Positions 3,343-38,818 of a stretch of DNA of 39,074 nt are shown here, piece by piece; the stretch's first letter is position 1, and each line of letters begins with the position of its first letter. The notes under the pieces were generated by a model. That model made no database searches and was not told where the DNA came from. It saw only the letters and a list, made by a program, of their open reading frames with translations. Source of the DNA: Alphaproteobacteria bacterium (lineage in GTDB: Bacteria > Pseudomonadota > Alphaproteobacteria > Rs-D84); contig JAFUTJ010000010.1 in assembly GCA_017471445.1 (NCBI GenBank), forward strand, positions 1-39,074, read 5' to 3'. A program made the position numbers and the translations under genes.

Positions 3343-4362
3343 ATGAAACAGAATATATCAATATTTGCGATTTTGTTTTTATCGTCGATTTGTGGCGCAC
3401 ATGCATTAGAATACAATTCTGGGAACATGACATTAAAACTTACCGGATATGGCACAGCAGGTTTTATAGAACCAGATTTTAATCAACCTGATTTTTTGGG
3501 CGATTTTCGCGCACGTGGTCAAATGAACTATGAAATGGATAACGTGCGGACATTTGGGTTGGTATATGCAATTGATGCCGCCGCATTGGATGAAGACGAC
3601 TATATGCGCGAAGCATTTACTTTTTTAGAACAACGGGGACTGGGGCGTATTGAATTGGGTTTTACCGATTCTGTGGCACGAAAGTTAAGCGTCGGATTAC
3701 CCGATGTTGGTGGAATGCGCGTTAATGATAAACCGTTGTTTTATAAAAAGATTCGTCCCGATGGTGCATTTATTTCTGATACAACATTAACAACCGGACG
3801 CGATGCGTTTCGGTTGAACGTCGTGTCTGCGTCAATGCGCGGTTTGCAATATGGTGCATCGGTTGCCGCGTTTGCAGATGATTATGACTATTCAATTGAT
3901 GCTGGGATAAAAATTCGTCGCCCAGCGGGCAAATTAAAAACGGCGTATTCTTTTTCTGCGTCATTTACCGAAAATGTGGACGGGTTTACAACCGATGCAT
4001 ACACCGCACCGGTGTTTGCCGACTGGCGTGCCCAGGGTGCAATTGGTATGAATTTACAATATAACAGTTGGATTTTGGGCATGAACGTACGCGCGATATA
4101 CGATGAAAACCCGGTTGGAATTGTATCGGATGGTATATCGGCCGGCACCGGTATCAGTTATGATTTATTAAAATACAGTGTTTCTTTATCATATATCTTT
4201 TCCGACACCGGTATTTGGGATTCCGACACTGACAATTACGACGCACATACCGTTATTGGTTCTTTTCGGTATAAATACAGCAGTGATGTTGATTTCTGGC
4301 TGTCCTTGGGGATGACAACAGATACGCCATTTGTATCGGTTGCATTGCGATTGAATTTTTAG
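3343..4362 (+). CDS. Porin-like outer-membrane beta-barrel protein
   Basis: The 339-aa product starts with a Sec signal peptide (MKQNISIFAILFLSSICGAHA, cleavage after AHA). It continues with alternating polar/aromatic beta strands typical of a 16-18-strand Gram-negative porin (LKLTGYGTAGF, RGLGRIELGFTDSVA, FRYKYSSDVDFWLSLGM). It ends in VALRLNF, with the terminal Phe that BAM recognises in outer-membrane proteins. It lies 10 nt after rpoH with only a weak AGGG before its start, so coupling to rpoH is likely. Substrate specificity cannot be read from the sequence. Confidence 0.75.
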   Translation: MKQNISIFAILFLSSICGAHALEYNSGNMTLKLTGYGTAGFIEPDFNQPDFLGDFRARGQMNYEMDNVRTFGLVYAIDAAALDEDDYMREAFTFLEQRGLGRIELGFTDSVARKLSVGLPDVGGMRVNDKPLFYKKIRPDGAFISDTTLTTGRDAFRLNVVSASMRGLQYGASVAAFADDYDYSIDAGIKIRRPAGKLKTAYSFSASFTENVDGFTTDAYTAPVFADWRAQGAIGMNLQYNSWILGMNVRAIYDENPVGIVSDGISAGTGISYDLLKYSVSLSYIFSDTGIWDSDTDNYDAHTVIGSFRYKYSSDVDFWLSLGMTTDTPFVSVALRLNF

Positions 4363-4391
4363 TGTGATATATCGATACGTTGTTTATTTGT

Positions 4392-4432
4392 GTAAATATA
4401 CCGGCAAACGCGTTATTTACGGTACCTTTTTT
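4392..4432 (+). terminator. Possible terminator after the porin gene; gap 4363-4583
   Basis: GTAAATA (4392-4398) pairs with TATTTAC (4414-4420), and a run of six T follows a few bases later. It is imperfect because the T-run is not adjacent. In the rest of the gap (4433-4583) I see no convincing gene. Confidence 0.35.
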
Positions 4433-4577
4433 ATCACGATATGGGGGGTATATTATCGCCGGTATTTTCACCCAACATACACATACCCGCCGCATCAAAC
4501 GCCATAAACATATGATGCGACGAATCAATAACATGAAATTTTTTATATGGGCTGCGCAATGCATGGCATACAAAATA

Positions 4578-4599
4578 AAAAAATGCCGCATACGCGGCA
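4578..4599 (-). terminator. Rho-independent terminator of the gene at 4610-5812
   Basis: On the minus strand TGCCGC and GCGGCA form a 6-bp stem with a 4-nt loop, followed by a run of seven T. It lies 11 nt past the stop codon. Confidence 0.75.
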
Positions 4600-4609
4600 A
4601 AATATATTT

Positions 4610-5812
4610 TTATGGACACTGTTCTAATTGATTCAGAACATTCTGAACATCGTTGTTTATCGAAACTGTTGACACGCGCCCCAGGCCATCGGTATACGTA
4701 TAATGGAACTTTTGATTTGCAAATTCTGGCATTGCGTCATACGCCTGAACAAATGGGGCCAGCATTGCCGTAAACCATTGCCGTCCACGGCACAGGCAAC
4801 CATTGCGAACATCGGCCGCAACAACCGCCGTTGACGTATTTGGGTATTTAGAATCTAATTCTTCGTCTGTCATCATCAGACAACGCGTTCCCAATCCATA
4901 GAAATTTGCATCATCGGCCATAAATTTATAAACCAATCCGTCCGATGCCCCCGCGCGTTTTAGTGAATAAACCATCCCGTCGGTACAGCATGCACGTGAT
5001 GCATTCATTAACATTTTATACCGTGCGACCAATGGTGCCGCCGCCGAATGTGTGGCATCAATATTACCAATGTACCGGGCCGCAGAAATAAAATCAGCCA
5101 TATTTGCGTTACGTATTTGACTGCTGCGCGGTGCAACGATTTCACGCATAACAGGTTTACGCCGCCATATTTCACATTCATCATCGGTATCAAATGGACA
5201 CCCATCATCGGTACCAAATGTTGCACGCACAATTTCAGACATATCTTGTTGAACATATTCATGACGTGGTGCGAAAATCGCATCATCTGTCCACAGATTT
5301 TCTGTTGGTCGCTGCGGCGATAATAATTCTTCGACACGCGCCCGTGTTGCCGCGGCATCGGCCATGTTTTGATTATACAGTGCAATTGCGTCATCGGTAT
5401 ATAATTCTGGTAATGGTTCCAAGAACCAATCACTGAAATCTTTGTCATATGGATTTGCAATTGAATCATCCCATATTGGTATACCAGTGTGCCAGTCAAC
5501 CGTTTTATCATATGCACGAGATTTATATTTACCATGCGTTCCATCCCACAGGGCCGGACGTGAATCATGTTCAATTGGCTTTACACTGAATAACTTTACC
5601 GAACGCGTCGGAATATTTGTTGGGTAAATATATTTTTGCGAAACCGCCGCATCATCAACAATCGGCGCCAATGGTACAATCGCCGCATTCATATCGGACA
5701 CCGCCGGGCGCATTGGTTCAATATCGCATGCGCCATCGGTACAATCCGACGCATGCGCCGCCATGGCAAACGCAACAATCATTACAGACGACAAGAACTT
5801 AATACATCTCAT
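4610..5812 (-). CDS. Secreted protein of unknown function (400 aa)
   Basis: I do not recognise a family. The N-terminus (MRCIKFLSSVMIVAFAMAAHA) is a clear Sec signal peptide with an AHA cleavage site. The mature protein is acidic, rich in Asp, and has scattered Cys residues in the second half, including a CC pair (ASRACCTDG) and CLCRG, compatible with disulphides in the periplasm or outside. There are no other membrane segments. The C-terminus QLEQCP is not a barrel ending. Its promoter ends 9 nt before the ATG and there is no Shine-Dalgarno, so the mRNA is probably leaderless. A terminator follows, so it is a single-gene unit. Confidence 0.7.
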   Translation of the reverse strand: MRCIKFLSSVMIVAFAMAAHASDCTDGACDIEPMRPAVSDMNAAIVPLAPIVDDAAVSQKYIYPTNIPTRSVKLFSVKPIEHDSRPALWDGTHGKYKSRAYDKTVDWHTGIPIWDDSIANPYDKDFSDWFLEPLPELYTDDAIALYNQNMADAAATRARVEELLSPQRPTENLWTDDAIFAPRHEYVQQDMSEIVRATFGTDDGCPFDTDDECEIWRRKPVMREIVAPRSSQIRNANMADFISAARYIGNIDATHSAAAPLVARYKMLMNASRACCTDGMVYSLKRAGASDGLVYKFMADDANFYGLGTRCLMMTDEELDSKYPNTSTAVVAADVRNGCLCRGRQWFTAMLAPFVQAYDAMPEFANQKFHYTYTDGLGRVSTVSINNDVQNVLNQLEQCP

Positions 5813-5821
5813 AATGATGTA

Positions 5822-5849
5822 ATTTTATCATAAAAACCCACATTATAAA
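5822..5849 (-). promoter_or_regulatory. Promoter of the 5812-4610 gene, predicted leaderless
   Basis: On the minus strand TTTATA, a 16-nt spacer and TAAAAT preceded by TGA form an extended -10 promoter. The -10 ends 9 nt before the ATG, leaving about 3 nt of 5' UTR. Confidence 0.55.
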
Positions 5850-5891
5850 ACATAATTTTGCAGTTGTTATTCAATAATAATTATGTTTATA

Positions 5892-5909
5892 GTGTGAATG
5901 TATTCACAC
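5892..5909 (+). promoter_or_regulatory. 8-bp palindrome at the predicted transcript start
   Basis: GTGTGAAT and ATTCACAC form a perfect inverted repeat separated by 2 nt. A plausible promoter (TTGCAG 5858-5863, 18 nt, TATGTT 5882-5887) would start RNA at about 5894. The palindrome is either an operator overlapping the start site or a 5'-terminal mRNA hairpin. It precedes a good Shine-Dalgarno (AAGGGAG) for the gene at 5928. Confidence 0.45.
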
Positions 5910-5927
5910 CCAAGGGAGAAAACAAGC

Positions 5928-6977
5928 ATGAACAAATTATCTATATTCGCAATAATCGCCACGATTGCAATACCGGTTATGGCCGATGAAACACCAAAAA
6001 CCGATACAACCACTGAAACCGAATCTATCGCTGCACAATATGGCACCAATGACACAGATATATCGGCGCAGTTAACCCAGATTCAAGAACAATTAACACA
6101 AATGCAATCTGATATTTCGGCGCAACGCGAAACATTAATGGCGCAACAAACACCAAACGCGCCAGAAACACAAGATGATAATGTTACATATTCTGTGAAA
6201 TCAAATTCAGAAATTCATTTCCCACATGGCATGCAAATTGGCGTTGGGTTATCGGCAACATCGGGGTTGAATGGTTTTGTTGGGTATGCGAATAAGAAAT
6301 TTGATTCATTTTGGTGGAAACGCGTTGGTATACGCTTTGACTTTGCAACGACAAAACCATTAAAGTCCATGATTAACCGTGTTATTGATAATGCAATGGG
6401 TGACGATGGGGTTGATATTGGTGATAATTTAACCATCAATGATGGCGCGTTAAAGGCGCATCATTTTGCCGCAATGGTTGATATATACCCATTTGGCGAT
6501 ACATGGTTCCTGGGTGGATGGCGCGTTTCGGGTGGTTATTACATGGGAAAAATGGACTTATCGGCAAACCTGGCCGGGCATGTTGACGGTGTGCCGGGTG
6601 CCGCAACCGAATTTAAGTTAATGGACACAACATATCGTTACAATGGTGGCGATATAACCGGCACCGCACATGCAAAATGGAATTTTCATGGGCCGTACGT
6701 TGGCACAGGATTTGATTTAGGACTGTTTGCCGGTATCAAGATTTACATGGATGCAGGTGTTGTATTCACAAACCGTGCCGCCGAATTATCATTGGATGTT
6801 CCGTTAACCGATAAATTACAGGTATGGGATGGTACCACATGGCAAAATGTTGATAATCCGACGTTGCAATCGGCGTTTGATGATGCAAAATGCGACGCAT
6901 TGGCCGATGCAAATGACGAATTAAATGACTATAAATTCTATCCTATGATAAAAATCGGACTGATGTATCGTTTTTAA
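5928..6977 (+). CDS. Outer-membrane beta-barrel protein with N-terminal coiled coil
   Basis: The 349-aa product has a signal peptide (MNKLSIFAIIATIAIPVMA) and a Thr/Glu-rich linker. A short coiled coil at about residues 43-70 (SAQLTQIQEQLTQMQSDISA) follows. The rest looks like a beta-barrel with strands such as GMQIGVGLSATSGLNGFVGY and IKIYMDAGVVFTN, and the end MIKIGLMYRF carries the aromatic terminal residue of outer-membrane proteins. The coiled coil may reach into the periplasm or trimerise. The start at 5928 follows AAGGGAG. No close family was recognised. Confidence 0.65.
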   Translation: MNKLSIFAIIATIAIPVMADETPKTDTTTETESIAAQYGTNDTDISAQLTQIQEQLTQMQSDISAQRETLMAQQTPNAPETQDDNVTYSVKSNSEIHFPHGMQIGVGLSATSGLNGFVGYANKKFDSFWWKRVGIRFDFATTKPLKSMINRVIDNAMGDDGVDIGDNLTINDGALKAHHFAAMVDIYPFGDTWFLGGWRVSGGYYMGKMDLSANLAGHVDGVPGAATEFKLMDTTYRYNGGDITGTAHAKWNFHGPYVGTGFDLGLFAGIKIYMDAGVVFTNRAAELSLDVPLTDKLQVWDGTTWQNVDNPTLQSAFDDAKCDALADANDELNDYKFYPMIKIGLMYRF

Positions 6978-7019: not shown

Positions 7020-8348
7020 TTACGGCGTTGAACGTTTTGATTTTATTTTATATCTTATTTCACGGAATGTATCTTTTGCCTTGTCATAATTACTTTTTGC
7101 ATTTGATAGCAATTGTTCGCCGTCTTTTACAACCTGGGTTCCGAATGATGTATCAATACTGCCCCCCAGGTTTTTGGCGATTTCTTGCCCCTTGTACGCA
7201 ATATATGCAATCAATGCCCCAGTCAACATCAATGTTATAAATCCGCCACTTTCCACGCTGGGGACGTCGCCCAATAAATTTGCATCAATTGCACCCGCCA
7301 TTAATGCGCCACACAATCCAATAACAACAGACAATGATACAAAATATATTGTTGCGTTTATAAAACGCATTACCTGTTTTTCAAGTTTTTCCGTCTTGAA
7401 TAACCCCAAGAAACCATTATAAATATTACCTGCGATTCCCTTGTACGACGTTTTATTTGTTGTTTCGGCAATTGCGGTAAATGGCAACATTAACACCGCC
7501 AAGAATAAATCGGCAATAACACCAAATGCCGTAACAGAAAATTTCCATAACAAAAACCCGAACAGAATTATACACGCCACCCCGGCAACGAATGTAAACG
7601 CACTGTGCCCAATTCCGGCAACCATCCAATGCCAACCGGCGGCAATTCCAGTTGCCGCCAATGCAGTCATACGCGACGGTACGCACATTATATCGGCGGC
7701 ATTTGATGCATCAATCATTATGTCCGAACTGGCGTGAATGCGTGCATATTCGTGTATTGCATTACATGTATCGGGTAACGTTGTGCCGATTGTTACGGTT
7801 ATTGCGTTTAATATCACATCTGATAAATATGCACCGATTGTAATTATTGGCCCAACAATCATCATAAACACCCGCGCCAACCCAAATTCCAAAATGGCAA
7901 TCCATATTGCCATAATTGCGCCTTTTTTAACAAGTTCTGTGACCAATTTTTTTACATCTGATGTCGTGGTCATCATGTTGTACGTTTCCATAAAAATCCA
8001 GAATGCATATGCAATAATCATGAATATTATCGCGAACCGAACCAATACAGAATCCAATACATGTGCAACAAATGATAATGCATTTATAAACGCCAAACCA
8101 ATACGCGCATCAATCGGTACCCCATCATGAACCAGCGGGTTTTCATCACCCGATGGGAAAAAGTTTTCCAAATCATTTTTCAGGTTCCCAATTACTTCGG
8201 CGCGGTTATGTTCGGTTGCCCATGTGCCGTAATCACCAATATCACCAACCACATTAGATATTGGTTCACATTGCGCCGCAATCGGTATTACAGCAATAAA
8301 CATTACAACAAATATTCGCGATAAAAATGTCTTTACGTATTGAATCAT
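7020..8348 (-). CDS. VirB6/TrbL-like polytopic membrane protein (paralogue 1, last in operon)
   Basis: VirB6/TrbL proteins form part of the inner-membrane channel of type IV secretion systems. This 442-aa member has a signal-like N-terminus (to about residue 27) and several membrane helices. The motif RVFMMIVGPIITIGAYLSDV is shared with the other four paralogues here. A cysteine pair lies in the following loop (DTCNAIHEY ... IMCVPSR), and an LPF motif in a late helix (LFLAVLMLPFTAIAE). It ends in a basic tail (KIKSKRS). Its ATG at 8348 lies 1 nt after the stop of the preceding gene, so translation is coupled. No other T4SS channel gene adjoins it. Confidence 0.75.
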   Translation of the reverse strand: MIQYVKTFLSRIFVVMFIAVIPIAAQCEPISNVVGDIGDYGTWATEHNRAEVIGNLKNDLENFFPSGDENPLVHDGVPIDARIGLAFINALSFVAHVLDSVLVRFAIIFMIIAYAFWIFMETYNMMTTTSDVKKLVTELVKKGAIMAIWIAILEFGLARVFMMIVGPIITIGAYLSDVILNAITVTIGTTLPDTCNAIHEYARIHASSDIMIDASNAADIMCVPSRMTALAATGIAAGWHWMVAGIGHSAFTFVAGVACIILFGFLLWKFSVTAFGVIADLFLAVLMLPFTAIAETTNKTSYKGIAGNIYNGFLGLFKTEKLEKQVMRFINATIYFVSLSVVIGLCGALMAGAIDANLLGDVPSVESGGFITLMLTGALIAYIAYKGQEIAKNLGGSIDTSFGTQVVKDGEQLLSNAKSNYDKAKDTFREIRYKIKSKRSTP

Positions 8349-8349
8349 G

Positions 8350-9783
8350 CTATTTTTTACCCAAGGCTTTGGTTATACCACCGAATATTTTATTTGGTAA
8401 TGACCATGCGGTTTTTCCGAAATCTTTGACCCATGCACCAAAGTCAAATTGTTCTTTGCCGCCGACGTTTAATATTTTATCAACGCGTGGTGACACCGCA
8501 TAGAAATACAGTACAAAAATCCCAATCATCATCATTATGAAATCCCAACCATTTGACATAAAGTCAAACGCACCCGGGTATACGCGTTCCACCGCCATTT
8601 TACGCGCGTTAAAGCAATCGCGGAATTTGTCGCCATCCATTTCACCATCGACCAGTGCAACCTGCTCGCATTCGGTAAACACGGTTATAACCGATTGTGT
8701 TTTTGCGTCTGGGTTTTCCGGTGACATTCCAATCAACGGGGGTAAAATCGCACTGAAACCATCGCGCGGCCCAGGAAAATATTCATCGGCCGCGAATGAA
8801 ACAGCCGCAAAAATAATGACCGTCTTTAATGTTATACCAACAATCTGAACAGCCGACTTTACAACCATATCAAATGCCTGGGGTAATAATCCAGATGCCA
8901 TTTTCCAAACCGGTTCAAACGCGGCGGCGGCAATTAAAAATGGCAAGAATATTATTATAAATATCAACTTGAACACGACCGACAAAATCTGGAAAAACAA
9001 GTTAAAGCCGATAATCAAAAACATTAATACCAACCCCAGTCCGGCAACCCATGTAAACGCGCCCCCGCCCAGGCCCATCCACGCATAATTCATTAATGAA
9101 AAACCACCCGCCGCCCCGGCCAGCATAACCGAATTTACATTTCCCATAACACACATAAATGGTGACATTATCGGATTTAATATATCATTTGTATCGGTCT
9201 GTTCCAACGCGTTGCACGTCGCCGCGGTATTAACAGCACTGGCCGCCATTGATAATTCGGCCCCAACATACATAACGGGTCTGATTGTTATATTTGCAAC
9301 CGTGCGCAGTGCATTTGTCCCCCCCATCCCCAGCGCACCAATTAATGCACCACAAATCATAACACGTGCACCCTGACGCCAAACCTTGTCAAACCAGGCC
9401 TGGAATTCCAATTTTTTTTCTGATGTGTCCAGGTTCGCCGTCTTTTTTGTTGCATCAAACAGGTATTGTGCAGTATATATAAACAGAAATATTCCAAAAC
9501 CAATTGCCATTAAAATCCATAAATTTCCGACAATTGCGTTCCAAAACATTTCTGTACCACGACCAATAATCCCGAACAGTTCACGAATATACCCACACAG
9601 GAAACAACCGTTTGCATTTGCAATATCGCCATCGGTTGCGCCAATTGCGTTCAAGAAACCATCAACACTGGTGTATGTCAGCGATGCCCCACCAATCGAT
9701 GACGATAAATACCAAATACCCAACCCCAGGGCAATACCACCCATGATTAATCGTATTGCAATGGCAATCAGTTTCATCTTCAT
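8350..9783 (-). CDS. VirB6/TrbL-like polytopic membrane protein (paralogue 2)
   Basis: 477 aa. An N-terminal helix is followed by a CxxC motif at C60/C63 (CFLCGYIRELF), at the same residue numbers as in the divergent paralogue at 12266. The family motif here reads RTVANITIRPVMYVGAEL. A loop cysteine pair (ATCNALEQ ... PFMCVMG) and a late FLPFLIAAAAFEPVWK segment complete the shared architecture. A cytoplasmic tail (WVKDFGKTAWSLPNKIFGG) ends the protein. Its start overlaps the stop of the gene before it by 4 nt (ATGA). It is probably an inner-membrane component of a T4SS or of a derived apparatus. Confidence 0.75.
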   Translation of the reverse strand: MKMKLIAIAIRLIMGGIALGLGIWYLSSSIGGASLTYTSVDGFLNAIGATDGDIANANGCFLCGYIRELFGIIGRGTEMFWNAIVGNLWILMAIGFGIFLFIYTAQYLFDATKKTANLDTSEKKLEFQAWFDKVWRQGARVMICGALIGALGMGGTNALRTVANITIRPVMYVGAELSMAASAVNTAATCNALEQTDTNDILNPIMSPFMCVMGNVNSVMLAGAAGGFSLMNYAWMGLGGGAFTWVAGLGLVLMFLIIGFNLFFQILSVVFKLIFIIIFLPFLIAAAAFEPVWKMASGLLPQAFDMVVKSAVQIVGITLKTVIIFAAVSFAADEYFPGPRDGFSAILPPLIGMSPENPDAKTQSVITVFTECEQVALVDGEMDGDKFRDCFNARKMAVERVYPGAFDFMSNGWDFIMMMIGIFVLYFYAVSPRVDKILNVGGKEQFDFGAWVKDFGKTAWSLPNKIFGGITKALGKK

Positions 9784-10958
9784 TTTTTGCCACCACTTGC
9801 TATTGTTTTTATACCGCGTTTGACATTATCAACAACATTTTCACCAAGTTGCATAACATTGTCAGCCAATTCTTCACTTAACCCGTTTTCAGACCCAACA
9901 TTAAACGCATTCAAAACCATTTGTGTTACCTTGGGTATTTGAGAATACACAAAGTCTAATACATATACCAACACAACCGCCTGAATCAATGTAATCGCCC
10001 CCAGATTTGTTTCATCTAAATCGGCGGCAAATACATTACCACTTAATATCAAATCCATTAAATCCGCAGTTGATGCACCCGGCACAGAAAAGAATTTCGC
10101 CAACACAACAATTATTATAGTGTATGTAATTGTTGCCGCAGCCAATGCAATAATCGCATTAATTAATTTTTTTATTTGACCTGTCCCCAAATTTTTCCCA
10201 AGCCCAGACATCCATGATGGGACACCGTCGGCATTCTTGAATGACACCATCATTAAAGACACCGGAAAAAAGAACGCAAAGAATGTCATTGCAATAATTA
10301 TATCTGCGAAATAACAACAGAAACGAAAGAATAATTTTGCAAATCCCCATAATAAACTTAATCCCACAAAAAACAATATAATGTGTTTAATCAGTGCACC
10401 AATCCCCAGCAATGCCGACCATGTAAACGCACTGTCCATTACGGCAATGCCCAATTTCATATATGCCTGAAATTGGGTTATTGTTGTTTTCATCAATAAT
10501 ATTATGCTGTCGCGTAAATCTTTGCGAAAGAAACCGGTATCGTCCATGGGTTCTGGGACATATGTAACCGCAGCATTAACGGCATCTGGGGTGGTTTTTA
10601 TCATTGATTGTGAATATATTGTCGCAATTGTTGCAACCGGTTCAAACGTAACCTGGGATACAAGGCGCGGAACCATAATCCCACCACCCAATAAAGTCAA
10701 TGCCACCAACGAATTTATCATTACTGGGCGAATTGATTTTGTAAACCATGGGTCTGGGGAATCGCTTTTCATATTTTTCCATACGGCATTTATCACAAAG
10801 AACGCAAATAACACACAAAATAGAATCATACACGCAATTACAAATTTATTGTACACCGCCGCCGCAGATGTTGAAACAATGCGAAACAGACGGTCAAATA
10901 CCGGGCAACCCCAACATTGCACTGTATTATCAATTAAATTGTTTAATACACCGTTCAT
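9780..10958 (-). CDS. VirB6/TrbL-like polytopic membrane protein (paralogue 3)
   Basis: 392 aa. It begins with a CxxC motif at C15/C18 (CWGCPVFDRLFRIV) ahead of the first membrane helix (FVIACMILFCVLFAFFVINAVW). The family motif reads RLVSQVTFEPVATIATIY. A Phe-rich helix with FFFPVSLMM and then SWMSG matches the late LPF...W block of its paralogues. It lacks the loop cysteine pair that the other four have. The stop of the preceding gene and this ATG share one base (TAATG), and it overlaps the next gene by 4 nt, so all four minus-strand paralogues are translated as a unit. Confidence 0.75.
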   Translation of the reverse strand: MNGVLNNLIDNTVQCWGCPVFDRLFRIVSTSAAAVYNKFVIACMILFCVLFAFFVINAVWKNMKSDSPDPWFTKSIRPVMINSLVALTLLGGGIMVPRLVSQVTFEPVATIATIYSQSMIKTTPDAVNAAVTYVPEPMDDTGFFRKDLRDSIILLMKTTITQFQAYMKLGIAVMDSAFTWSALLGIGALIKHIILFFVGLSLLWGFAKLFFRFCCYFADIIIAMTFFAFFFPVSLMMVSFKNADGVPSWMSGLGKNLGTGQIKKLINAIIALAAATITYTIIIVVLAKFFSVPGASTADLMDLILSGNVFAADLDETNLGAITLIQAVVLVYVLDFVYSQIPKVTQMVLNAFNVGSENGLSEELADNVMQLGENVVDNVKRGIKTIASGGKK

Positions 10959-12196
10959 TATTTCCGTTTTCTGAATATGTTACGCGCCTTGGATACCATT
11001 GTTGCCCAATCTGTTTTCGCGTTTTTATTCAAATCGCCCATTCCCGAACCAACATAGGCGTCTAATTGTTCGCGTGTTAACTGAAATATCTTAAACATTA
11101 AATAAAATGTCAAAATCCCAGACAACCATAATATTGAATGTCCACCAAATCCAATTGCACCATTTGCAATCGTCGGCACATTACTGTGCGCAGAACCACC
11201 TGCGGCAACACTAAAAACAGATGTATTCCATTGAAACAACGCCTTTACAACGGCGACATTTATCGTCATTATAAATGCACACGCAATCATTGTTATTATT
11301 AATTGCTGTAACGCCTTAATCACACCGTCAAATGCAGGCATTATGTCCATCCACTTATCGCTGGGCTTTACAACATATGTCAGTACGCTGAATGGGTACA
11401 AAACCAAAGACATACCAAAGTTAAATATTCCCTGAATCACCAACATTGCCATGAATAAATTGCTGGCTACGAATGTGAATACCAATAATATTCCCGTAAC
11501 TAAATTCATAAAATCTTCGCCGCCGTGCGGAACCAATGTAATTAACCCACGCAGCCCACGTGTAATAAACTCAAAACCACGTTCAATAACGCGATTGTTT
11601 GCACGCGATAAATCTGATACCGGCTGAATCAAAAAATCACACGACGACGGTGATATCCATTCTTTTGCAATAATGTCTGGGGGACATTCGACTGTGCGCG
11701 ATTGTGTACCAGAATCGTTAATTGTTTCTGTTATTGCGTGTGTATATAATGCCCCAATTTGTAAAAATGGATTAATTAGCCAATTTGTCATATATACCGG
11801 CTTAATCGGCAACAGAACCGTAACCGCAATAATTGCACGTATACATGGGCGCAGTGCCCCCTGGGCAATTGTCATGCCGTCGGTACCCGCCGATAAATCG
11901 CCACCACCCGAAAATCCAAAAAATGATACCCATATTTTTGGAAAGAATAGTTTTAATCCATATGTGGCCAATGAAATTGCCAAAAATCCCCAAACCAACA
12001 CATATATTATGCCGGTACCACCGCCAACAAAAAAATCATACCCGGCTGTGGCAACCGACATTAACGCATCCAGCACCAATGGCACAAACGGCGACAAATC
12101 CAGTTTCTGGGCCAAACTGTCTGCGAACGATACACCCGGCATCACGCACATTGCCGCGGAACATGCAAACAATATAAAGTTATTTTTTCGCAACAT
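10958..12196 (-). CDS. VirB6/TrbL-like polytopic membrane protein (paralogue 4, first in operon)
   Basis: 412 aa from the ATG at 12196, chosen because a signal peptide starts there (LRKNNFILFACSAAMCVMPG, cleavage near SFA) and a promoter lies just upstream. The mature protein has several membrane helices. The family motif is degenerate (MTNWLINPFLQIGALYT). A cysteine pair occurs in the following loop (VECPPD ... SSCDFL). The late block reads SLVLYPFSVLTYVVKPSDKW. It ends in a basic tail (ARNIFRKRK). It leads a four-gene operon of its own paralogues. Confidence 0.75.
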   Translation of the reverse strand: MLRKNNFILFACSAAMCVMPGVSFADSLAQKLDLSPFVPLVLDALMSVATAGYDFFVGGGTGIIYVLVWGFLAISLATYGLKLFFPKIWVSFFGFSGGGDLSAGTDGMTIAQGALRPCIRAIIAVTVLLPIKPVYMTNWLINPFLQIGALYTHAITETINDSGTQSRTVECPPDIIAKEWISPSSCDFLIQPVSDLSRANNRVIERGFEFITRGLRGLITLVPHGGEDFMNLVTGILLVFTFVASNLFMAMLVIQGIFNFGMSLVLYPFSVLTYVVKPSDKWMDIMPAFDGVIKALQQLIITMIACAFIMTINVAVVKALFQWNTSVFSVAAGGSAHSNVPTIANGAIGFGGHSILWLSGILTFYLMFKIFQLTREQLDAYVGSGMGDLNKNAKTDWATMVSKARNIFRKRK

Positions 12197-12218
12197 TCTC
12201 TTAATATACTTGCATTCA

Positions 12219-12251
12219 ATTATATCACAATGCGACAAATTATGATATAGT
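12219..12251. promoter_or_regulatory. Divergent extended -10 promoters between VirB6 paralogues 4 and 5
   Basis: On the minus strand TGATATAAT (12227-12219) is a perfect extended -10 for the four-gene operon, giving a 5' UTR of about 15 nt. On the plus strand TGATATAGT (12243-12251) serves the gene at 12266 with a UTR of about 8 nt. The elements lie within 35 bp of each other, so both sets could be expressed together. Neither has a clear -35. Confidence 0.55.
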
Positions 12252-12265
12252 TAAAGATATAAATT

Positions 12266-13552
12266 ATGTCGCGATTAAAGAAATTTTTAATTGTTTTTAT
12301 GTCTTTTATGCCATTTGCCGCCGGGGCATTGGCACCGGTTGTTGTGGCCCTGGTTGGTGGGATTGCCGCAATTGCCGGTTTTTCAATATATCGTACGAAT
12401 TTTCCGGTTGATATGGCCGGGGCATTAAAATTCTTTTCAACATGTTGGTCGTGCCACATGTTTTCAGATGTAATGGCCGTAATGTCAAATGCAATTCCCG
12501 GTGTGTATCATGCGATTGGATTGACGGTAATACCATTCGCCGCAGGATTAACCGCCGTATGGTTTGCATGGAAATTATTAAGCGGTTATTTTAATCAAAA
12601 AATTGACGACCCATGGAACACCGCCGGCAGTTTTGGAACCATGCTGATAAAACTGACATTTGTCAGCGCATTGTTAATGGCACCATTACCACGCATGTTA
12701 ACCAGTATTGCAATTGAGCCAATATTTAACATTGGTCTGTCAATTAATCACGTGGTTGGTGATACCGAAAACTTTAATACATGTGTTGTTGCAACCGCAA
12801 TTGCCGACCAAACCAGTATTGATTCACACAGTGCATCCCGTGGGGCATTTTCACCAAAATTGCGGCACAATTTGGCATGCGAATTGGCCGATATACATAA
12901 AATAACTGCATTGGGAATGACAACCGGTTGGACCATGTTGAATATGGCATTTGATTCGCAATATATGCATAAAATTATTTTTGGAATACCAATTTTTCCA
13001 AATGTGCCAGTATTCTTTGCAGGATTGACGGTGCTGGCTTTGTTTTTTATGGCATTGTTGCCGATACCAATGTATTTCTTGGAAACATTTATAAAATTAT
13101 CGCTGGATTTGATAATGTTACCGTTGATGTTATTGTCTTGGTTATTCCAAGATTGGAAAATATTCCCACAAGGCAAGAAAAATATACGCAAAATTATTGA
13201 TGATGTGGTTCAAGGAACGGTTGGAATCGCAATGACGTGCGTTATGTTAATATTTATGTTGATGTTCTTGGATGCGGTTGCGGGTGGATGGAACAACACA
13301 GGCGGTTTGTTGACAGCCATTGAACAAAACGATTCGTCGATATTAATGGACGGATTGATGATGCAAAACGACAGTTTGGTCACAATGATATTAATGGGAT
13401 TATTCTTTTTCATGTTTATGTCCATGATTCCTGCACTGGTCAAGACATTCTTTAATGTTCAGGTATCTGACGAATTTTATAATACTGCAAAAAAGAACAT
13501 TAATGGGATTCGCGAAAATGTGAATAAATGGCGGGCCGCGTTAAAAAAATAA
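12266..13552 (+). CDS. VirB6/TrbL-like polytopic membrane protein (paralogue 5, divergent)
   Basis: 428 aa. N-terminal hydrophobic segments (residues about 5-40) precede a CxxC at C60/C63 (CWSCHMFSDVM), exactly as in the paralogue at 8350-9783. The family motif RMLTSIAIEPIFNIGLSI is the clearest of the five. A loop cysteine pair (NTCVVATA ... NLACELAD) and the late block LIMLPLMLLSWLFQDWKIFP follow. It ends in a basic amphipathic tail (NVNKWRAALKK). It diverges from the four-gene operon, whose promoter elements adjoin its own. Confidence 0.75.
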   Translation: MSRLKKFLIVFMSFMPFAAGALAPVVVALVGGIAAIAGFSIYRTNFPVDMAGALKFFSTCWSCHMFSDVMAVMSNAIPGVYHAIGLTVIPFAAGLTAVWFAWKLLSGYFNQKIDDPWNTAGSFGTMLIKLTFVSALLMAPLPRMLTSIAIEPIFNIGLSINHVVGDTENFNTCVVATAIADQTSIDSHSASRGAFSPKLRHNLACELADIHKITALGMTTGWTMLNMAFDSQYMHKIIFGIPIFPNVPVFFAGLTVLALFFMALLPIPMYFLETFIKLSLDLIMLPLMLLSWLFQDWKIFPQGKKNIRKIIDDVVQGTVGIAMTCVMLIFMLMFLDAVAGGWNNTGGLLTAIEQNDSSILMDGLMMQNDSLVTMILMGLFFFMFMSMIPALVKTFFNVQVSDEFYNTAKKNINGIRENVNKWRAALKK

Positions 13553-13620: not shown

Positions 13621-14130
13621 ATGACAACGTTTCCGATTCTTTATTGGCCACATGCCACAACCGATACCCCAGATTATCAACTGGCGCGCAAGGTCATAAA
13701 TAACGCAACTGGTATAATGCCGGACGTTATAATGGGCGATTTGAACCTGGCCGAAATATTTGCCGAAAACAAAGATGCCGCGGTGTATTATCCGGTATTT
13801 TGCGAATCAACCGGTTGGTGGGGCGAATTATTGGGTGCAGATGCCGTTGTAACTGATAAATTGATTATTTCCCCAGAATGTCAGGTTATGGTCATTCGCA
13901 ATTGCAAAAATGCGTCAACGCGCGGGGCGAATCAATTACTGGCGGCGGAAATTTACCCGGCCAGTGGTTTTTTCAAGAAAATGAATTCATCAATCGCAAC
14001 CGTTGCAGACATGTTGGCCACCGACGCAGGAACAATACTGGCTTTATTTTCTGGCAAGAATCAATCACAATTTGTAAACGTCTTGGAATCCACAGGTAAT
14101 TCATATCTGGGATGTATTGGCCGATACTAA
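13621..14130 (+). CDS. Hypothetical protein (169 aa)
   Basis: I do not recognise a family. The protein has no signal peptide and no membrane helix, so it is probably cytoplasmic. Features are a conserved-looking ESTGWWGELLGADAVVTDKL stretch at about residues 63-82, a CQVMVIRNCKN strand, and a C-terminus with LESTGNSYLGCIGRY. Codon use resembles the neighbouring genes. It has its own promoter and terminator and is convergent with mreB. Its reading frame is supported by the promoter position and a clean terminator. Confidence 0.7.
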   Translation: MTTFPILYWPHATTDTPDYQLARKVINNATGIMPDVIMGDLNLAEIFAENKDAAVYYPVFCESTGWWGELLGADAVVTDKLIISPECQVMVIRNCKNASTRGANQLLAAEIYPASGFFKKMNSSIATVADMLATDAGTILALFSGKNQSQFVNVLESTGNSYLGCIGRY

Positions 14131-26512: not shown

Positions 26513-26810
26513 ATGAAACCATTGTGTAAGATTCGGACGTTTGCGCCACGTCGCACCGGCAAATGCGCACTATACCGGTGCGGGTACACCGGATGTTGGC
26601 AACTGCCCGTGGGAATGTGATGCGGGGTTCGGTCATACATCCGACGACCGGTGTTTGCCGCTGTGTCGGATTGGTGAAACCGCAATGAATGGCATAAACA
26701 TATACGCCGAAAAGCACACCAAATATGCCATGGCCGTACCACGCGGTGGCGCGACATGTTGGATTAGTGCCACACGCGACAATGGCGGGAAATTGGTTCC
26801 GGTAAATTAG
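26513..26810 (+). pseudogene. Cys-rich surface protein gene with 500-nt internal deletion
   Basis: The first 30 codons of DNA match the gene at 32566 (ATGAAACCATTGTGTAAGAT; CCACGTCGCAC). The sequence then jumps to the part coding for the C-terminal domain (GCACCGGCAAATGCGCAC). Relative to the 32566 gene exactly 500 nt are missing, joined at the 4-nt identity GCAC. This shifts the frame, and translation from 26513 stops early. The C-terminal 80 codons (from PANAHYTG to GGKLVPVN) remain open and well conserved. A TTG at 26541 could start them, but it would give no signal peptide. Confidence 0.75.
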
Positions 26811-26874: not shown

Positions 26875-26991
26875 CGTGCACCAAAAAACCACCGTTTTTT
26901 TGTGCACGCAATGAAAGGAGAAAAAATGCAGAAAACCAAGGTTGTTAATATAACAAAACACTGCACAAAAAAACGGTCATTTTTTTGTGCA
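26875..26991 (+). promoter_or_regulatory. Two hairpins with mutually complementary arms around the VirB2-like start codon
   Basis: Hairpin a (26875-26908) pairs CGTGCAC...AAAAAAC with GTTTTTT...GTGCACG around a 4-nt loop. Hairpin b (26962-26991), inside the coding region, pairs TGCACAAAAAAA with its complement around a 6-nt loop. The 3' arm of a (26891-26906) is perfectly complementary over 16 nt to the 5' arm of b (26962-26977). The Shine-Dalgarno (26914-26920) and ATG (26926) lie between them, so two exclusive folds are possible. Confidence 0.6.
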
Positions 26992-27321
26992 TGTGTTATT
27001 GCCGCAATAATGGTATGCGGGACCGCGAATGCCGCAGACAATAGTTCATTTTGTGAATTGGTAAAGCAATTACAAAGTGTGTTCAAGACATTGCGAACAA
27101 TGGCATTTGTTGGGGCAGGTTTTATATTGGCCAAATATGGATGGGATGCAATTTCCACCAACAAAATTGGCGGGAAAGATAATATTGCCGATGGGTTAAA
27201 AGCAATTGGGGTTCCAATGATTGTCGGATTTTCATTGCTGTTCGCGATTGGCGTTATAATCGGTTTCTTGATTGACGGACATACGATTATTAATTGCCCA
27301 GAATTGACCCAAGGATGGTAA
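26926..27321 (+). CDS. VirB2/TrbC-like pilin subunit
   Basis: VirB2/TrbC proteins are the small hydrophobic pilins of type IV secretion systems. The 131-aa product has a long signal peptide (FFCACVIAAIMVCGTANA, cleavage near residue 37), a short loop with one Cys (SSFCELVKQLQ), and two membrane helices (LRTMAFVGAGFILAKYG, and VPMIVGFSLLFAIGVIIGFL). These are separated by a polar loop (NKIGGKDNIADG), the normal pilin layout. AAAGGAG lies 5 nt before the ATG. Together with the five VirB6-like proteins it is the only other T4SS-type gene here. The family call rests on size and topology. Confidence 0.72.
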   Translation: MQKTKVVNITKHCTKKRSFFCACVIAAIMVCGTANAADNSSFCELVKQLQSVFKTLRTMAFVGAGFILAKYGWDAISTNKIGGKDNIADGLKAIGVPMIVGFSLLFAIGVIIGFLIDGHTIINCPELTQGW

Positions 27322-32565: not shown

Positions 32566-33387
32566 ATGAAACCATTGTGTAAGATTCGGGTGTTTGTGCC
32601 ACGTCGCACTGTCAAAGTGATGTCGGTGATTTATGTACTGGCGGCGGTTGGCGGTGTCGGCACGGCCCGCGCCGCAACATGCGACGCGGGGTATTATTTG
32701 AATGCGGCGGGCGAATGCGTTGATTGCAATACCGGACTTGCCCAATGCGCCGGTGTATATTGCCCAGGTGACGATATACAACACGAATGCCCGACTATCA
32801 CCCAAAAACAAAAAGAAATGTATGAAAACATGTTTGGTGATGGGGCTGTTATAACAACGCAATTGCCGAAAACCGGTTGGAATTGTGTATTAACACACAA
32901 AACAAGCAGATACAACTGCACAAATTCACTTTATGTAACAGACAGATATGGAAATCTATATTTAAATGAATCGATGTATAATTCATCAACCGGATTATAC
33001 GGCGTATATAAACTATATTATCAGGCGGGGCCCGGTTACTATCTGTCGCCATATATTGGAACTTCATCTCATGTTTGGTACAATGGCGTAAAACCATGCA
33101 CCAATGCACCGGCAAATGCGCACTATACCGGTGCGGGTACACCGGACAGTCCGGATGGTACGATTATGGACGCAAACGATTGCCCGTGGGAATGTGACGA
33201 TGGATTCGGTCACACATCCGATGACCGGTGTTTACCATTGTGTCGGATTGGTGACACCGCAATGAATGGCATAAATATATATGCGGAAAAGCATACCAAA
33301 TATGCCATGGCGGTTCCACGCGCGGGCGGCGTGTGCTGGATTAGTGCCACACGGGGGCAGGGCGGTAAATTGGTACCAACCAATTAA
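32566..33387 (+). CDS. Cys-rich secreted surface protein
   Basis: The 273-aa product has an N-terminal region with a late signal peptide (VIYVLAAVGGVGTARAA, cleavage before TCDAG at about residue 38). A Cys-rich module follows (CDAGYYLN...CVDC...YCPGDD...ECP), resembling GCC2/GCC3 growth-factor-receptor-like repeats. Next come a variable middle (about 80-180) and a conserved C-terminal domain of about 90 residues with six Cys (DCPWECDDGFGHTSDDRCLP, LCRIGDTAMNG, VCWISATR). The C-terminal domain is nearly identical to those encoded at 26541-26810 and 38609-38818. It is probably disulphide-bonded outside the cell. The function is unknown. Confidence 0.75.
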   Translation: MKPLCKIRVFVPRRTVKVMSVIYVLAAVGGVGTARAATCDAGYYLNAAGECVDCNTGLAQCAGVYCPGDDIQHECPTITQKQKEMYENMFGDGAVITTQLPKTGWNCVLTHKTSRYNCTNSLYVTDRYGNLYLNESMYNSSTGLYGVYKLYYQAGPGYYLSPYIGTSSHVWYNGVKPCTNAPANAHYTGAGTPDSPDGTIMDANDCPWECDDGFGHTSDDRCLPLCRIGDTAMNGINIYAEKHTKYAMAVPRAGGVCWISATRGQGGKLVPTN

Positions 33388-38056: not shown

Positions 38057-38818
38057 ATGAAAAAATTTTTTACACCAAACCGTTTATTACGTTGTCATGC
38101 GATATTTTTCGTCGTGTGTGTGCAATTTTGTATCGGTGGCACGGCACGCGCCGCAACATGCGATGCGGGGCAATACATGAACAATGGTGAATGTACACAG
38201 TGTATCTCGCCATATTACTGTCCGGGGGATGATTTAAGTTATGAATGTCCAGGAACCAATTTGACCAAGTCGGATGTTCTGAATTTGATACCTAATATTT
38301 CAGATTATGGGGATATATCGTATAGCACAACCGCCCATACTGTTACCCCAACATCGATAACAAATTGTTCTATGCGTCCAGTAAATGCATCAAATGATGC
38401 ATGCGCAAATATTTATACTGTTTTGGATTATTCTATAGATTCATCAGATTATACCAAAGCCAGTGGTACTACATTATGTCATGCTGCACAAATTGGTTAT
38501 TATTTACAAAATCACTATACTGGCACAGGTTATAGAAATGTTGCACCATGTACAAATGAAATTCCCGCCAATTCACATTACAGTGGCCCCGGCACACCGG
38601 ATGTCGGTGATTGCCCGTGGGAATGTGACGATGGATTCGGTCACACATCCGATGACCGGTGTTTACCATTGTGTCGGATTGGTGACACCGCAATGAACGG
38701 TATTAACATATATGCGGAAAAGCACACGAAATACGCCATGGCCGTACCACGCAATGGCGCAACATGTTGGATTAACGCCACACGCGACAATGGCGGGAAA
38801 TTACAGATGGTGAACTAA
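38057..38818 (+). CDS. Cys-rich secreted surface protein
   Basis: The 253-aa product has a signal peptide (AIFFVVCVQFCIGGTARAA) and a Cys module (CDAGQYMNNGECTQC...YYCPGDDLSYECPG). A middle region rich in Thr, Asn and Tyr follows; it is not similar to that of the 32566 protein. The conserved C-terminal domain (DCPWECDDGFGHTSDDRCLP, LCRIGDTAMNG, ATCWINATR) ends the protein. An 89-nt block of this domain (38609-38697) is identical in DNA to 33178-33266. Its stop codon overlaps that of the convergent gene by 4 nt. The function is unknown. Confidence 0.75.
   Translation: MKKFFTPNRLLRCHAIFFVVCVQFCIGGTARAATCDAGQYMNNGECTQCISPYYCPGDDLSYECPGTNLTKSDVLNLIPNISDYGDISYSTTAHTVTPTSITNCSMRPVNASNDACANIYTVLDYSIDSSDYTKASGTTLCHAAQIGYYLQNHYTGTGYRNVAPCTNEIPANSHYSGPGTPDVGDCPWECDDGFGHTSDDRCLPLCRIGDTAMNGINIYAEKHTKYAMAVPRNGATCWINATRDNGGKLQMVN

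What the first reader, a model, noticed from the sequence alone, without database searches (positions are those of the whole stretch)
7020..13552. Five paralogous VirB6-like proteins without the rest of a T4SS
All five share a motif of the form R-x5-[IVF]-x-x-P-hh-x-hG after the early helices (for example RMLTSIAIEPIFNIG and RVFMMIVGPIITIG) and a late P-F/L...W block. Four share a loop cysteine pair and three a CxxC near the N-terminus (C60/C63 in two). Four are translationally coupled. Rickettsiales carry tandem virB6 copies in their rvh T4SS, but there beside virB3/virB4. Here the set stands alone, suggesting a hetero-oligomeric channel, with a VirB2-like pilin 13 kb away as the only other component seen.
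Basis: partly seen in the sequence, partly recalled or inferred. Interest (0 to 1): 0.75.

Follow-up and report, generated by a model that had tools for sequence, protein, structure and literature searches.

The report
Five-part VirB6 set, dispersed secretion system
A tiny-genome gut alphaproteobacterium related to Candidatus Enterousia carries five different VirB6 channel-base genes where most secretion systems have one; the rest of the secretion machine is present but scattered around the genome, and the five-gene set appears to have arisen separately from the well-known one in Rickettsia.

Summary
The five genes are real, paralogous and VirB6-like. The order-level orthologue of one passes Pfam's TrbL/VirB6 cut-off, and AlphaFold models of two (V2, V4) match R388 VirB6 best (Z 13.5 and 13.6). 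"Without the rest of a T4SS" is an effect of the 39-kb window. The same 0.91-Mb MAG (Candidatus Enterousia-like, GTDB order Rs-D84) carries VirB3-VirB4, VirB8-VirB9-VirB10, VirB11 and VirD4 at four other places. The five-gene set is complete in all 73 Enterousia-type loci that reach far enough, always in the same order, and is one co-directional operon in sister families; V5 is inverted in the window's lineage. Each gene has its own orthologues across the order. The set is not the Rickettsiales rvh array: not beside virB3/virB4, single-copy VirB4 and VirB9, and outside the rvh VirB6 proteins in a quick tree, which favours independent amplification. Best mechanism: V1-V5 are non-redundant subunits of one VirB6 assembly at the base of a T4SS, plausibly a one-of-each hetero-pentamer (VirB6 is a pentamer in R388 and Dot/Icm). 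The hetero-pentamer is inference only. New variant of a known kind.

The parts
7020..8348 (-). V1, VirB6 paralogue (442 aa), last gene of the coupled run; loop Cys pair C195/C222, no CxxC
   Evidence: ORF; profile-profile to V2-V5 with E 3e-22 to 5e-27; single orthologue in all 80 named loci
8350..9783 (-). V2, VirB6 paralogue (477 aa), CxxC at C60/C63
   Evidence: AlphaFold model matches R388 VirB6 7o3v_F Z 13.5, 250 aligned; order orthologue L018:8026-9585 hits PF04610 at 1.6e-5; CxxC in 80 of 80 orthologues
9780..10958 (-). V3, VirB6 paralogue (392 aa), CWGC at 15-18
   Evidence: Profile-profile V3-V4 2e-41 over 507 columns, V3-V5 3e-30
10958..12238 (-). V4, VirB6 paralogue (426 aa as called from TTG; likelier start ATG 12196)
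   Evidence: AlphaFold model pLDDT 77 matches R388 VirB6 Z 13.6 and DotA 9ngy Z 10.3; start positions
12266..13552 (+). V5, VirB6 paralogue (428 aa), CWSC at 60-63, transcribed divergently from V4-V1
   Evidence: Order orthologue L018:13625-15307 passes the PF04610 cut-off (36.6 vs 25.9 bits); orthologue in 22 of 23 same-genus genomes
12197..12265 (.). Short divergent intergenic region between V4 (ATG 12196) and V5, presumed to hold both promoters
   Evidence: Sequence read; function inferred
13621..14130 (+). 169-aa protein of unknown family, conserved downstream partner of V5
   Evidence: Present in 71 of 80 named loci, adjacent and co-directional with V5 in 69; no Pfam match
26926..27321 (+). 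Candidate VirB2-type pilin (signal peptide, two hydrophobic segments)
   Evidence: Homologues in 22 of 23 same-genus genomes; paralogue in own genome at C10:1624-1872; in G014 a homologue lies about 1.3 kb from VirB11. PF04956 only E 0.24

Best explanation
The five genes encode five non-redundant VirB6 subunits of one chromosomal P-type T4SS in a host- or partner-dependent gut alphaproteobacterium (order Rs-D84, Candidatus Enterousia group). Shown: VirB6 homology, the order-wide five-gene set, and presence of VirB3, B4, B8, B9, B10, B11 and D4 elsewhere in the genome. Inferred: the five proteins sit in the inner membrane and periplasm at the base of the machine, where a single VirB6 normally forms a pentamer, and assemble together as a hetero-oligomer, most simply one copy of each. 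They would act with VirB3/VirB4 below and VirB8/VirB10 around them to let substrates picked up by VirD4 enter the trans-envelope channel. Inferred from lifestyle only: the substrates are proteins delivered to a partner cell rather than conjugative DNA.
For: Paralogy. VirB6 fold: V2 and V4 models best match R388 VirB6, Z 13.5 and 13.6 with the next unrelated row at 8.9 and 10.6. PF04610 cut-off passed by the V5 orthologue L018:13625-15307. Profile match to VirB4-adjacent VirB6 of other alphaproteobacteria, 96.8%, 2.8e-10 over 235 columns. T4SS core in the same genome: VirB4 C3, VirB3 beside it, VirB9 and VirB10 C18, VirB8 C18, VirD4 C3, VirB11 C19. Non-redundancy: all five present, same order, in 71 of 80 loci, in two more on re-reading, and the other seven reach a contig end; the genomes are about 1 Mb, so idle copies should have been lost. 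Coupled junctions across the genus. Each V is its own orthologous group across families. VirB6 pentamer in R388 and DotA: PMC12857230. Interaction of the four VirB6 paralogues of Ehrlichia is the title of a paper cited in PMC7648143, not read here.
Against: No window protein hits PF04610 itself. No direct evidence that the five proteins contact each other. In stand-alone arrays of other alphaproteobacterial families the local copy number is 3 to 5, and Anaplasma has four (PMC7648143), so 'five equals pentamer' is not a general rule. Substrate is unknown; a relaxase was not searched for.
Confidence: 0.6

Rival explanations
1. The five VirB6 proteins are alternative subunits: each forms its own homo-pentamer, giving machines with different substrates or stages of use that share one core.
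For: Strong divergence between paralogues (14-17% identity to V5 in the window); V5 is transcribed apart from V4-V1, so two expression units exist.
Against: Four of the five are translationally coupled, all five are co-directional in sister families, and every complete locus keeps all five. Only one VirB4 and one VirB9 are found per genome.
Confidence: 0.2
2. The array is a Rickettsiales rvh VirB6 set, inherited or transferred from Rickettsiales, now separated from virB3/virB4.
For: Same copy number as Rickettsia (five, PMC2653234); dispersed T4SS genes; no VirB5 over cut-off; extra VirB8-like genes in many relatives.
Against: V profiles do not find VirB4-adjacent VirB6 arrays but do find stand-alone arrays in other families. 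The tree separates rvh from the V clade. VirB4 and VirB9 are not duplicated, against the rvh hallmarks in PMC11077975.
Confidence: 0.08
3. The five are VirB6-fold membrane proteins recruited to another envelope function and not part of this T4SS.
For: Physically apart from the other T4SS genes in the genomes seen.
Against: Array and T4SS core co-occur across the order; no second VirB6 was found by PF04610 in the own genome, and a P-type T4SS with VirB3/B4/B8-B11 is expected to need one. G022, where V5 is not found, also lacks VirB9 and VirB10 hits.
Confidence: 0.07
4. The T4SS including the array is a conjugation or DNA-exchange system rather than an effector system.
For: VirD4 resembles conjugation coupling proteins; a relaxase was not tested.
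Against: Genes are chromosomal, dispersed and present across a genome-reduced order, unlike a mobile element.
Confidence: 0.15

Closest known systems
rvh T4SS of Rickettsiales (RvhB6a-e)
   Same: P-type core, four to five divergent VirB6 paralogues in tandem, genes scattered over the genome, no VirB5 detected
   Different: Array not beside virB3-virB4; VirB4 and VirB9 single-copy; VirB6 proteins in a separate tree clade and not found by the V sequence profiles
Single-copy VirB6 of conjugative P-type T4SS (R388 TrwI)
   Same: Same predicted fold as V2 and V4 (Z 13.5 and 13.6)
   Different: One gene making a homo-pentamer, in one cluster with the other virB genes; here five genes apart from the rest and no VirB5 found
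DotA of the Dot/Icm T4SS
   Same: VirB6-like fold, pentameric protochannel (PMC12857230); V4 model Z 10.3
   Different: Single protein of a type IVB system, much longer
Stand-alone VirB6-like arrays in other alphaproteobacterial families (L150, L153, L154, L156, L202, L204)
   Same: Tandem VirB6-like genes without virB3/virB4 beside them, often CWxC near the N-terminus, closest sequence relatives of the window set outside its order
   Different: Form their own clade; local copy number 3-5; members often longer, one with a fused M23 peptidase; grouping of V2 with their small member rejected, p-AU 0.0006

Membership tests
VirB6/TrbL family (PF04610) | Recognised by the family sequence profile | tested here: inconclusive
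   Window proteins themselves give no hit; the order-level orthologue of V5 passes the cut-off at 36.6 bits and a V2 orthologue reaches E 1.6e-5
VirB6/TrbL family (PF04610) | VirB6 fold as in R388 TrwI | tested here: met
   V2 Z 13.5, V4 Z 13.6, above unrelated rows at 8.9 and 10.6. V1, V3, V5 not modelled, linked by profiles
VirB6/TrbL family (PF04610) | Polytopic membrane protein | tested here: met
   5-7 hydrophobic segments in each by hydropathy
VirB6/TrbL family (PF04610) | Essential conserved Trp | not tested
   Trp residues follow the conserved Pro in four of five by eye, but homology to the essential Trp was not established
P-type (VirB/VirD4) T4SS | VirB3, B4, B8, B9, B10, B11, D4 in the genome | tested here: met
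P-type (VirB/VirD4) T4SS | VirB2 pilin | tested here: inconclusive
   Candidate at 26926-27321 with paralogue on C10; PF04956 E 0.24 here, but 6.5e-8 for the candidate of a sister family
rvh T4SS of Rickettsiales | Multi-copy VirB6 | tested here: met
   Five
rvh T4SS of Rickettsiales | Duplicated VirB4 | tested here: not met
   One full-length VirB4 frame per genome
rvh T4SS of Rickettsiales | Duplicated VirB9 | tested here: not met
   One VirB9 per genome
rvh T4SS of Rickettsiales | Duplicated VirB8 | tested here: inconclusive
   Second partial VirB8 match in many relatives, a tandem pair in G010 (L211); only one found in the own genome
rvh T4SS of Rickettsiales | No VirB5 | tested here: met
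   PF07996: nothing over cut-off in 41 genomes; one weak match in own genome, 7e-4
rvh T4SS of Rickettsiales | VirB6 array beside virB3-virB4 | tested here: not met
   VirB3-VirB4 on C3, array on C21

The most novel reading that the evidence does not exclude
A second lineage of alphaproteobacteria evolved, independently of Rickettsiales, a T4SS whose VirB6 stalk base is an obligate one-of-each hetero-pentamer of five dedicated paralogues, giving an asymmetric channel base in place of the usual homo-pentamer.
Probability: 0.3. Interest if true: 0.78.

Novelty: new variant of a known kind. Interest (0 to 1): 0.5.

Why it matters
Why Rickettsiales keep four or five VirB6 copies despite genome reduction is an open question (raised in PMC2653234). 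A second, apparently independent case of exactly five retained VirB6 paralogues, in a different genome-reduced lineage with an otherwise mostly single-copy T4SS core, makes the hetero-oligomer idea testable by comparison and in structure. It also indicates that the Rs-D84/Enterousia gut bacteria carry a T4SS: the paper on their genomes suggests an obligate symbiont or parasite lifestyle but has no occurrence of 'secretion' or 'T4SS' in its main text (PMC12306168).

Tried and rejected
Pfam and NCBIfam scans of the window's five proteins: no informative match; a search of PDB sequences with the V2 profile: none. The order-wide V2 alignment was too divergent for a contig scan; a genus-level one worked. 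Idea that V2 is the shared ancestral member of all stand-alone arrays: suggested by best-hit HMM scores, rejected by AU test (long branches, quick tree). Comparison with TrbL singles failed because the extracted frames were not reliable. The careful tree did not finish; conclusions rest on the quick tree with SH-aLRT support only. Literature searches for a T4SS in Rs-D84 and for VirB6 hetero-pentamers in Rickettsiales found nothing in the held library. The structural second-look lists did not show other families above VirB6; absence there excludes nothing.
Full report
WHAT IS THERE. The window is contig C21 of a 0.91-Mb, 23-contig, 88%-complete genome. Its closest named relatives in a scan with V2 include several Candidatus Enterousia MAGs from animal guts; the genus is Alphaproteobacteria incertae sedis at NCBI and order Rs-D84 in GTDB according to PMC12306168. 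Five ORFs lie at the stated coordinates. I call them V1 (7020-8348-), V2 (8350-9783-), V3 (9780-10958-), V4 (10958-12238-, likelier start 12196) and V5 (12266-13552+).

PARALOGY. BLASTP links V1-V2, V2-V3 and V3-V5 at 1e-6 to 1e-7 and V2-V4 at 2e-3. In 4000 comparisons with shuffled versions none was below 1e-3. With family profiles from sister genomes every pair is linked at E 7e-17 or better. The exact motif string fits only V2, but its proline core is conserved over 30 proteins of the order. Coupled junctions hold in the window and across the genus.

THEY ARE VirB6. No window protein hits PF04610. The orthologue of V5 in a sister family passes the cut-off at 36.6 bits and a V2 orthologue reaches 1.6e-5. 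AlphaFold models of V2 (mean pLDDT 67) and V4 (77) have R388 VirB6 as best match: Z 13.5 over 250 residues and Z 13.6 over 251, with unrelated helical proteins at 8.9 and 10.6. For V4 the DotA protochannel also appears (Z 10.3). Foldseek E-values are weak (0.034 and 0.006) but probabilities are 1.00. A joint V profile matches VirB6 proteins that sit beside VirB4 in other alphaproteobacteria: 96.8%, 2.8e-10, 235 columns. V1, V3 and V5 were not modelled.

THE REST OF THE T4SS. It is in the genome: VirB3 and VirB4 on C3 near 107.7-110.4 kb; VirD4 on C3 near 61.4-63.6 kb; VirB8, VirB9 and VirB10 side by side on C18 near 53-57.6 kb; VirB11 on C19 near 128-129 kb. A candidate pilin is in the window at 26926-27321 with a paralogue on C10; in relative G014 a homologue lies about 1.3 kb from VirB11. 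VirB5 was not found over cut-off. The same core occurs across the order.

THE SET IS EXACTLY FIVE. Of 80 named loci fetched through V2, 71 read V5- V4+ V3+ V2+ V1+; L060 and L102 also have V5, first hidden by an over-long V4 frame; the other seven reach a contig end (positions). This sample is conditioned on V2 being present. In sister families (L017, L018, L020, L021, L022, L027) all five run in one direction, so V5 was inverted in the lineage of the window. The 169-aa gene after V5 is conserved in the window's genus (69 loci). Several members in sister families are longer (500-875 aa in L017 and L018); the window's are close to bare VirB6 domains.

RELATION TO rvh. Rickettsia also has five divergent VirB6 (PMC2653234). 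The hallmarks given in PMC11077975 are duplicated VirB4, VirB8 and VirB9, multi-copy VirB6 and no VirB5. Here VirB4 and VirB9 are single; VirB8 has extra relatives in many genomes, for example a tandem pair in G010; the array is not beside virB3-virB4. V profiles do not find VirB4-adjacent VirB6 arrays, while they find stand-alone arrays in other alphaproteobacterial families. These other arrays were found by a V2 profile, so their similarity is partly by selection. A quick tree puts V1-V5, the other stand-alone arrays and the rvh-type proteins in three groups (SH-aLRT 92, 91, 90), with V1-V5 each tracking the order's families. Grouping V2 with the small members of the other arrays is rejected, p-AU 0.0006. 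Branches are long, so independent amplification is favoured, not proven.

MECHANISM. VirB6 is a pentamer at the base of the stalk in R388, and DotA forms a pentameric protochannel (PMC12857230). Strict retention of five coupled, divergent, single-copy VirB6 genes in genomes of about 1 Mb, next to a mostly single-copy core, is best explained if each supplies a distinct subunit of one assembly; one of each would give a hetero-pentamer. This last step is inference. Copy numbers of three to five in other arrays and four in Anaplasma (PMC7648143) argue against a universal rule. Delivery of proteins to a partner cell is inferred from the symbiont or parasite lifestyle proposed in PMC12306168.

VERDICT. 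Observation mostly right, 'without the rest' wrong beyond the window, interpretation partly supported. New variant of a known kind.

Noticed in passing
window 26541-26810, 32566-33387, 38057-38818: Three copies (one a fragment) of a secreted Cys-rich protein family sharing a C-terminal stretch around GFGHTSDDRCLPLCRIG; one lies just before the candidate pilin.
   Followed up: no
L156:6726-9818: A VirB6-like array member in another alphaproteobacterial family carries an N-terminal M23 peptidase domain (E 2.4e-26) fused to the VirB6 region.
   Followed up: no
L211:3561-4196 and 4196-4891 (G010): Two adjacent VirB8-like genes away from the VirB8-B9-B10 cluster; partial second VirB8 matches occur in many Enterousia-group genomes.
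   Followed up: partly
L150, L154, L155, L202: Stand-alone VirB6 arrays in other alphaproteobacterial families are followed by a conserved HTH regulator (MEEIIFPNQIR...) and a very large protein of unknown family.
   Followed up: partly
G022 (same genus, 96% complete): Has VirB4, VirB11 and VirD4 but no V5, VirB9 or VirB10 hit: a missing contig or a decaying T4SS.
   Followed up: no
window 4610-6977: A secreted 400-aa protein and an outer-membrane-like protein lie after V1, where several relatives have a UvrD-type helicase gene.
   Followed up: no
L206 (G000:C19:151839-152144): Weak VirB5 profile match (E 7e-4, below cut-off) in the own genome only.
   Followed up: no
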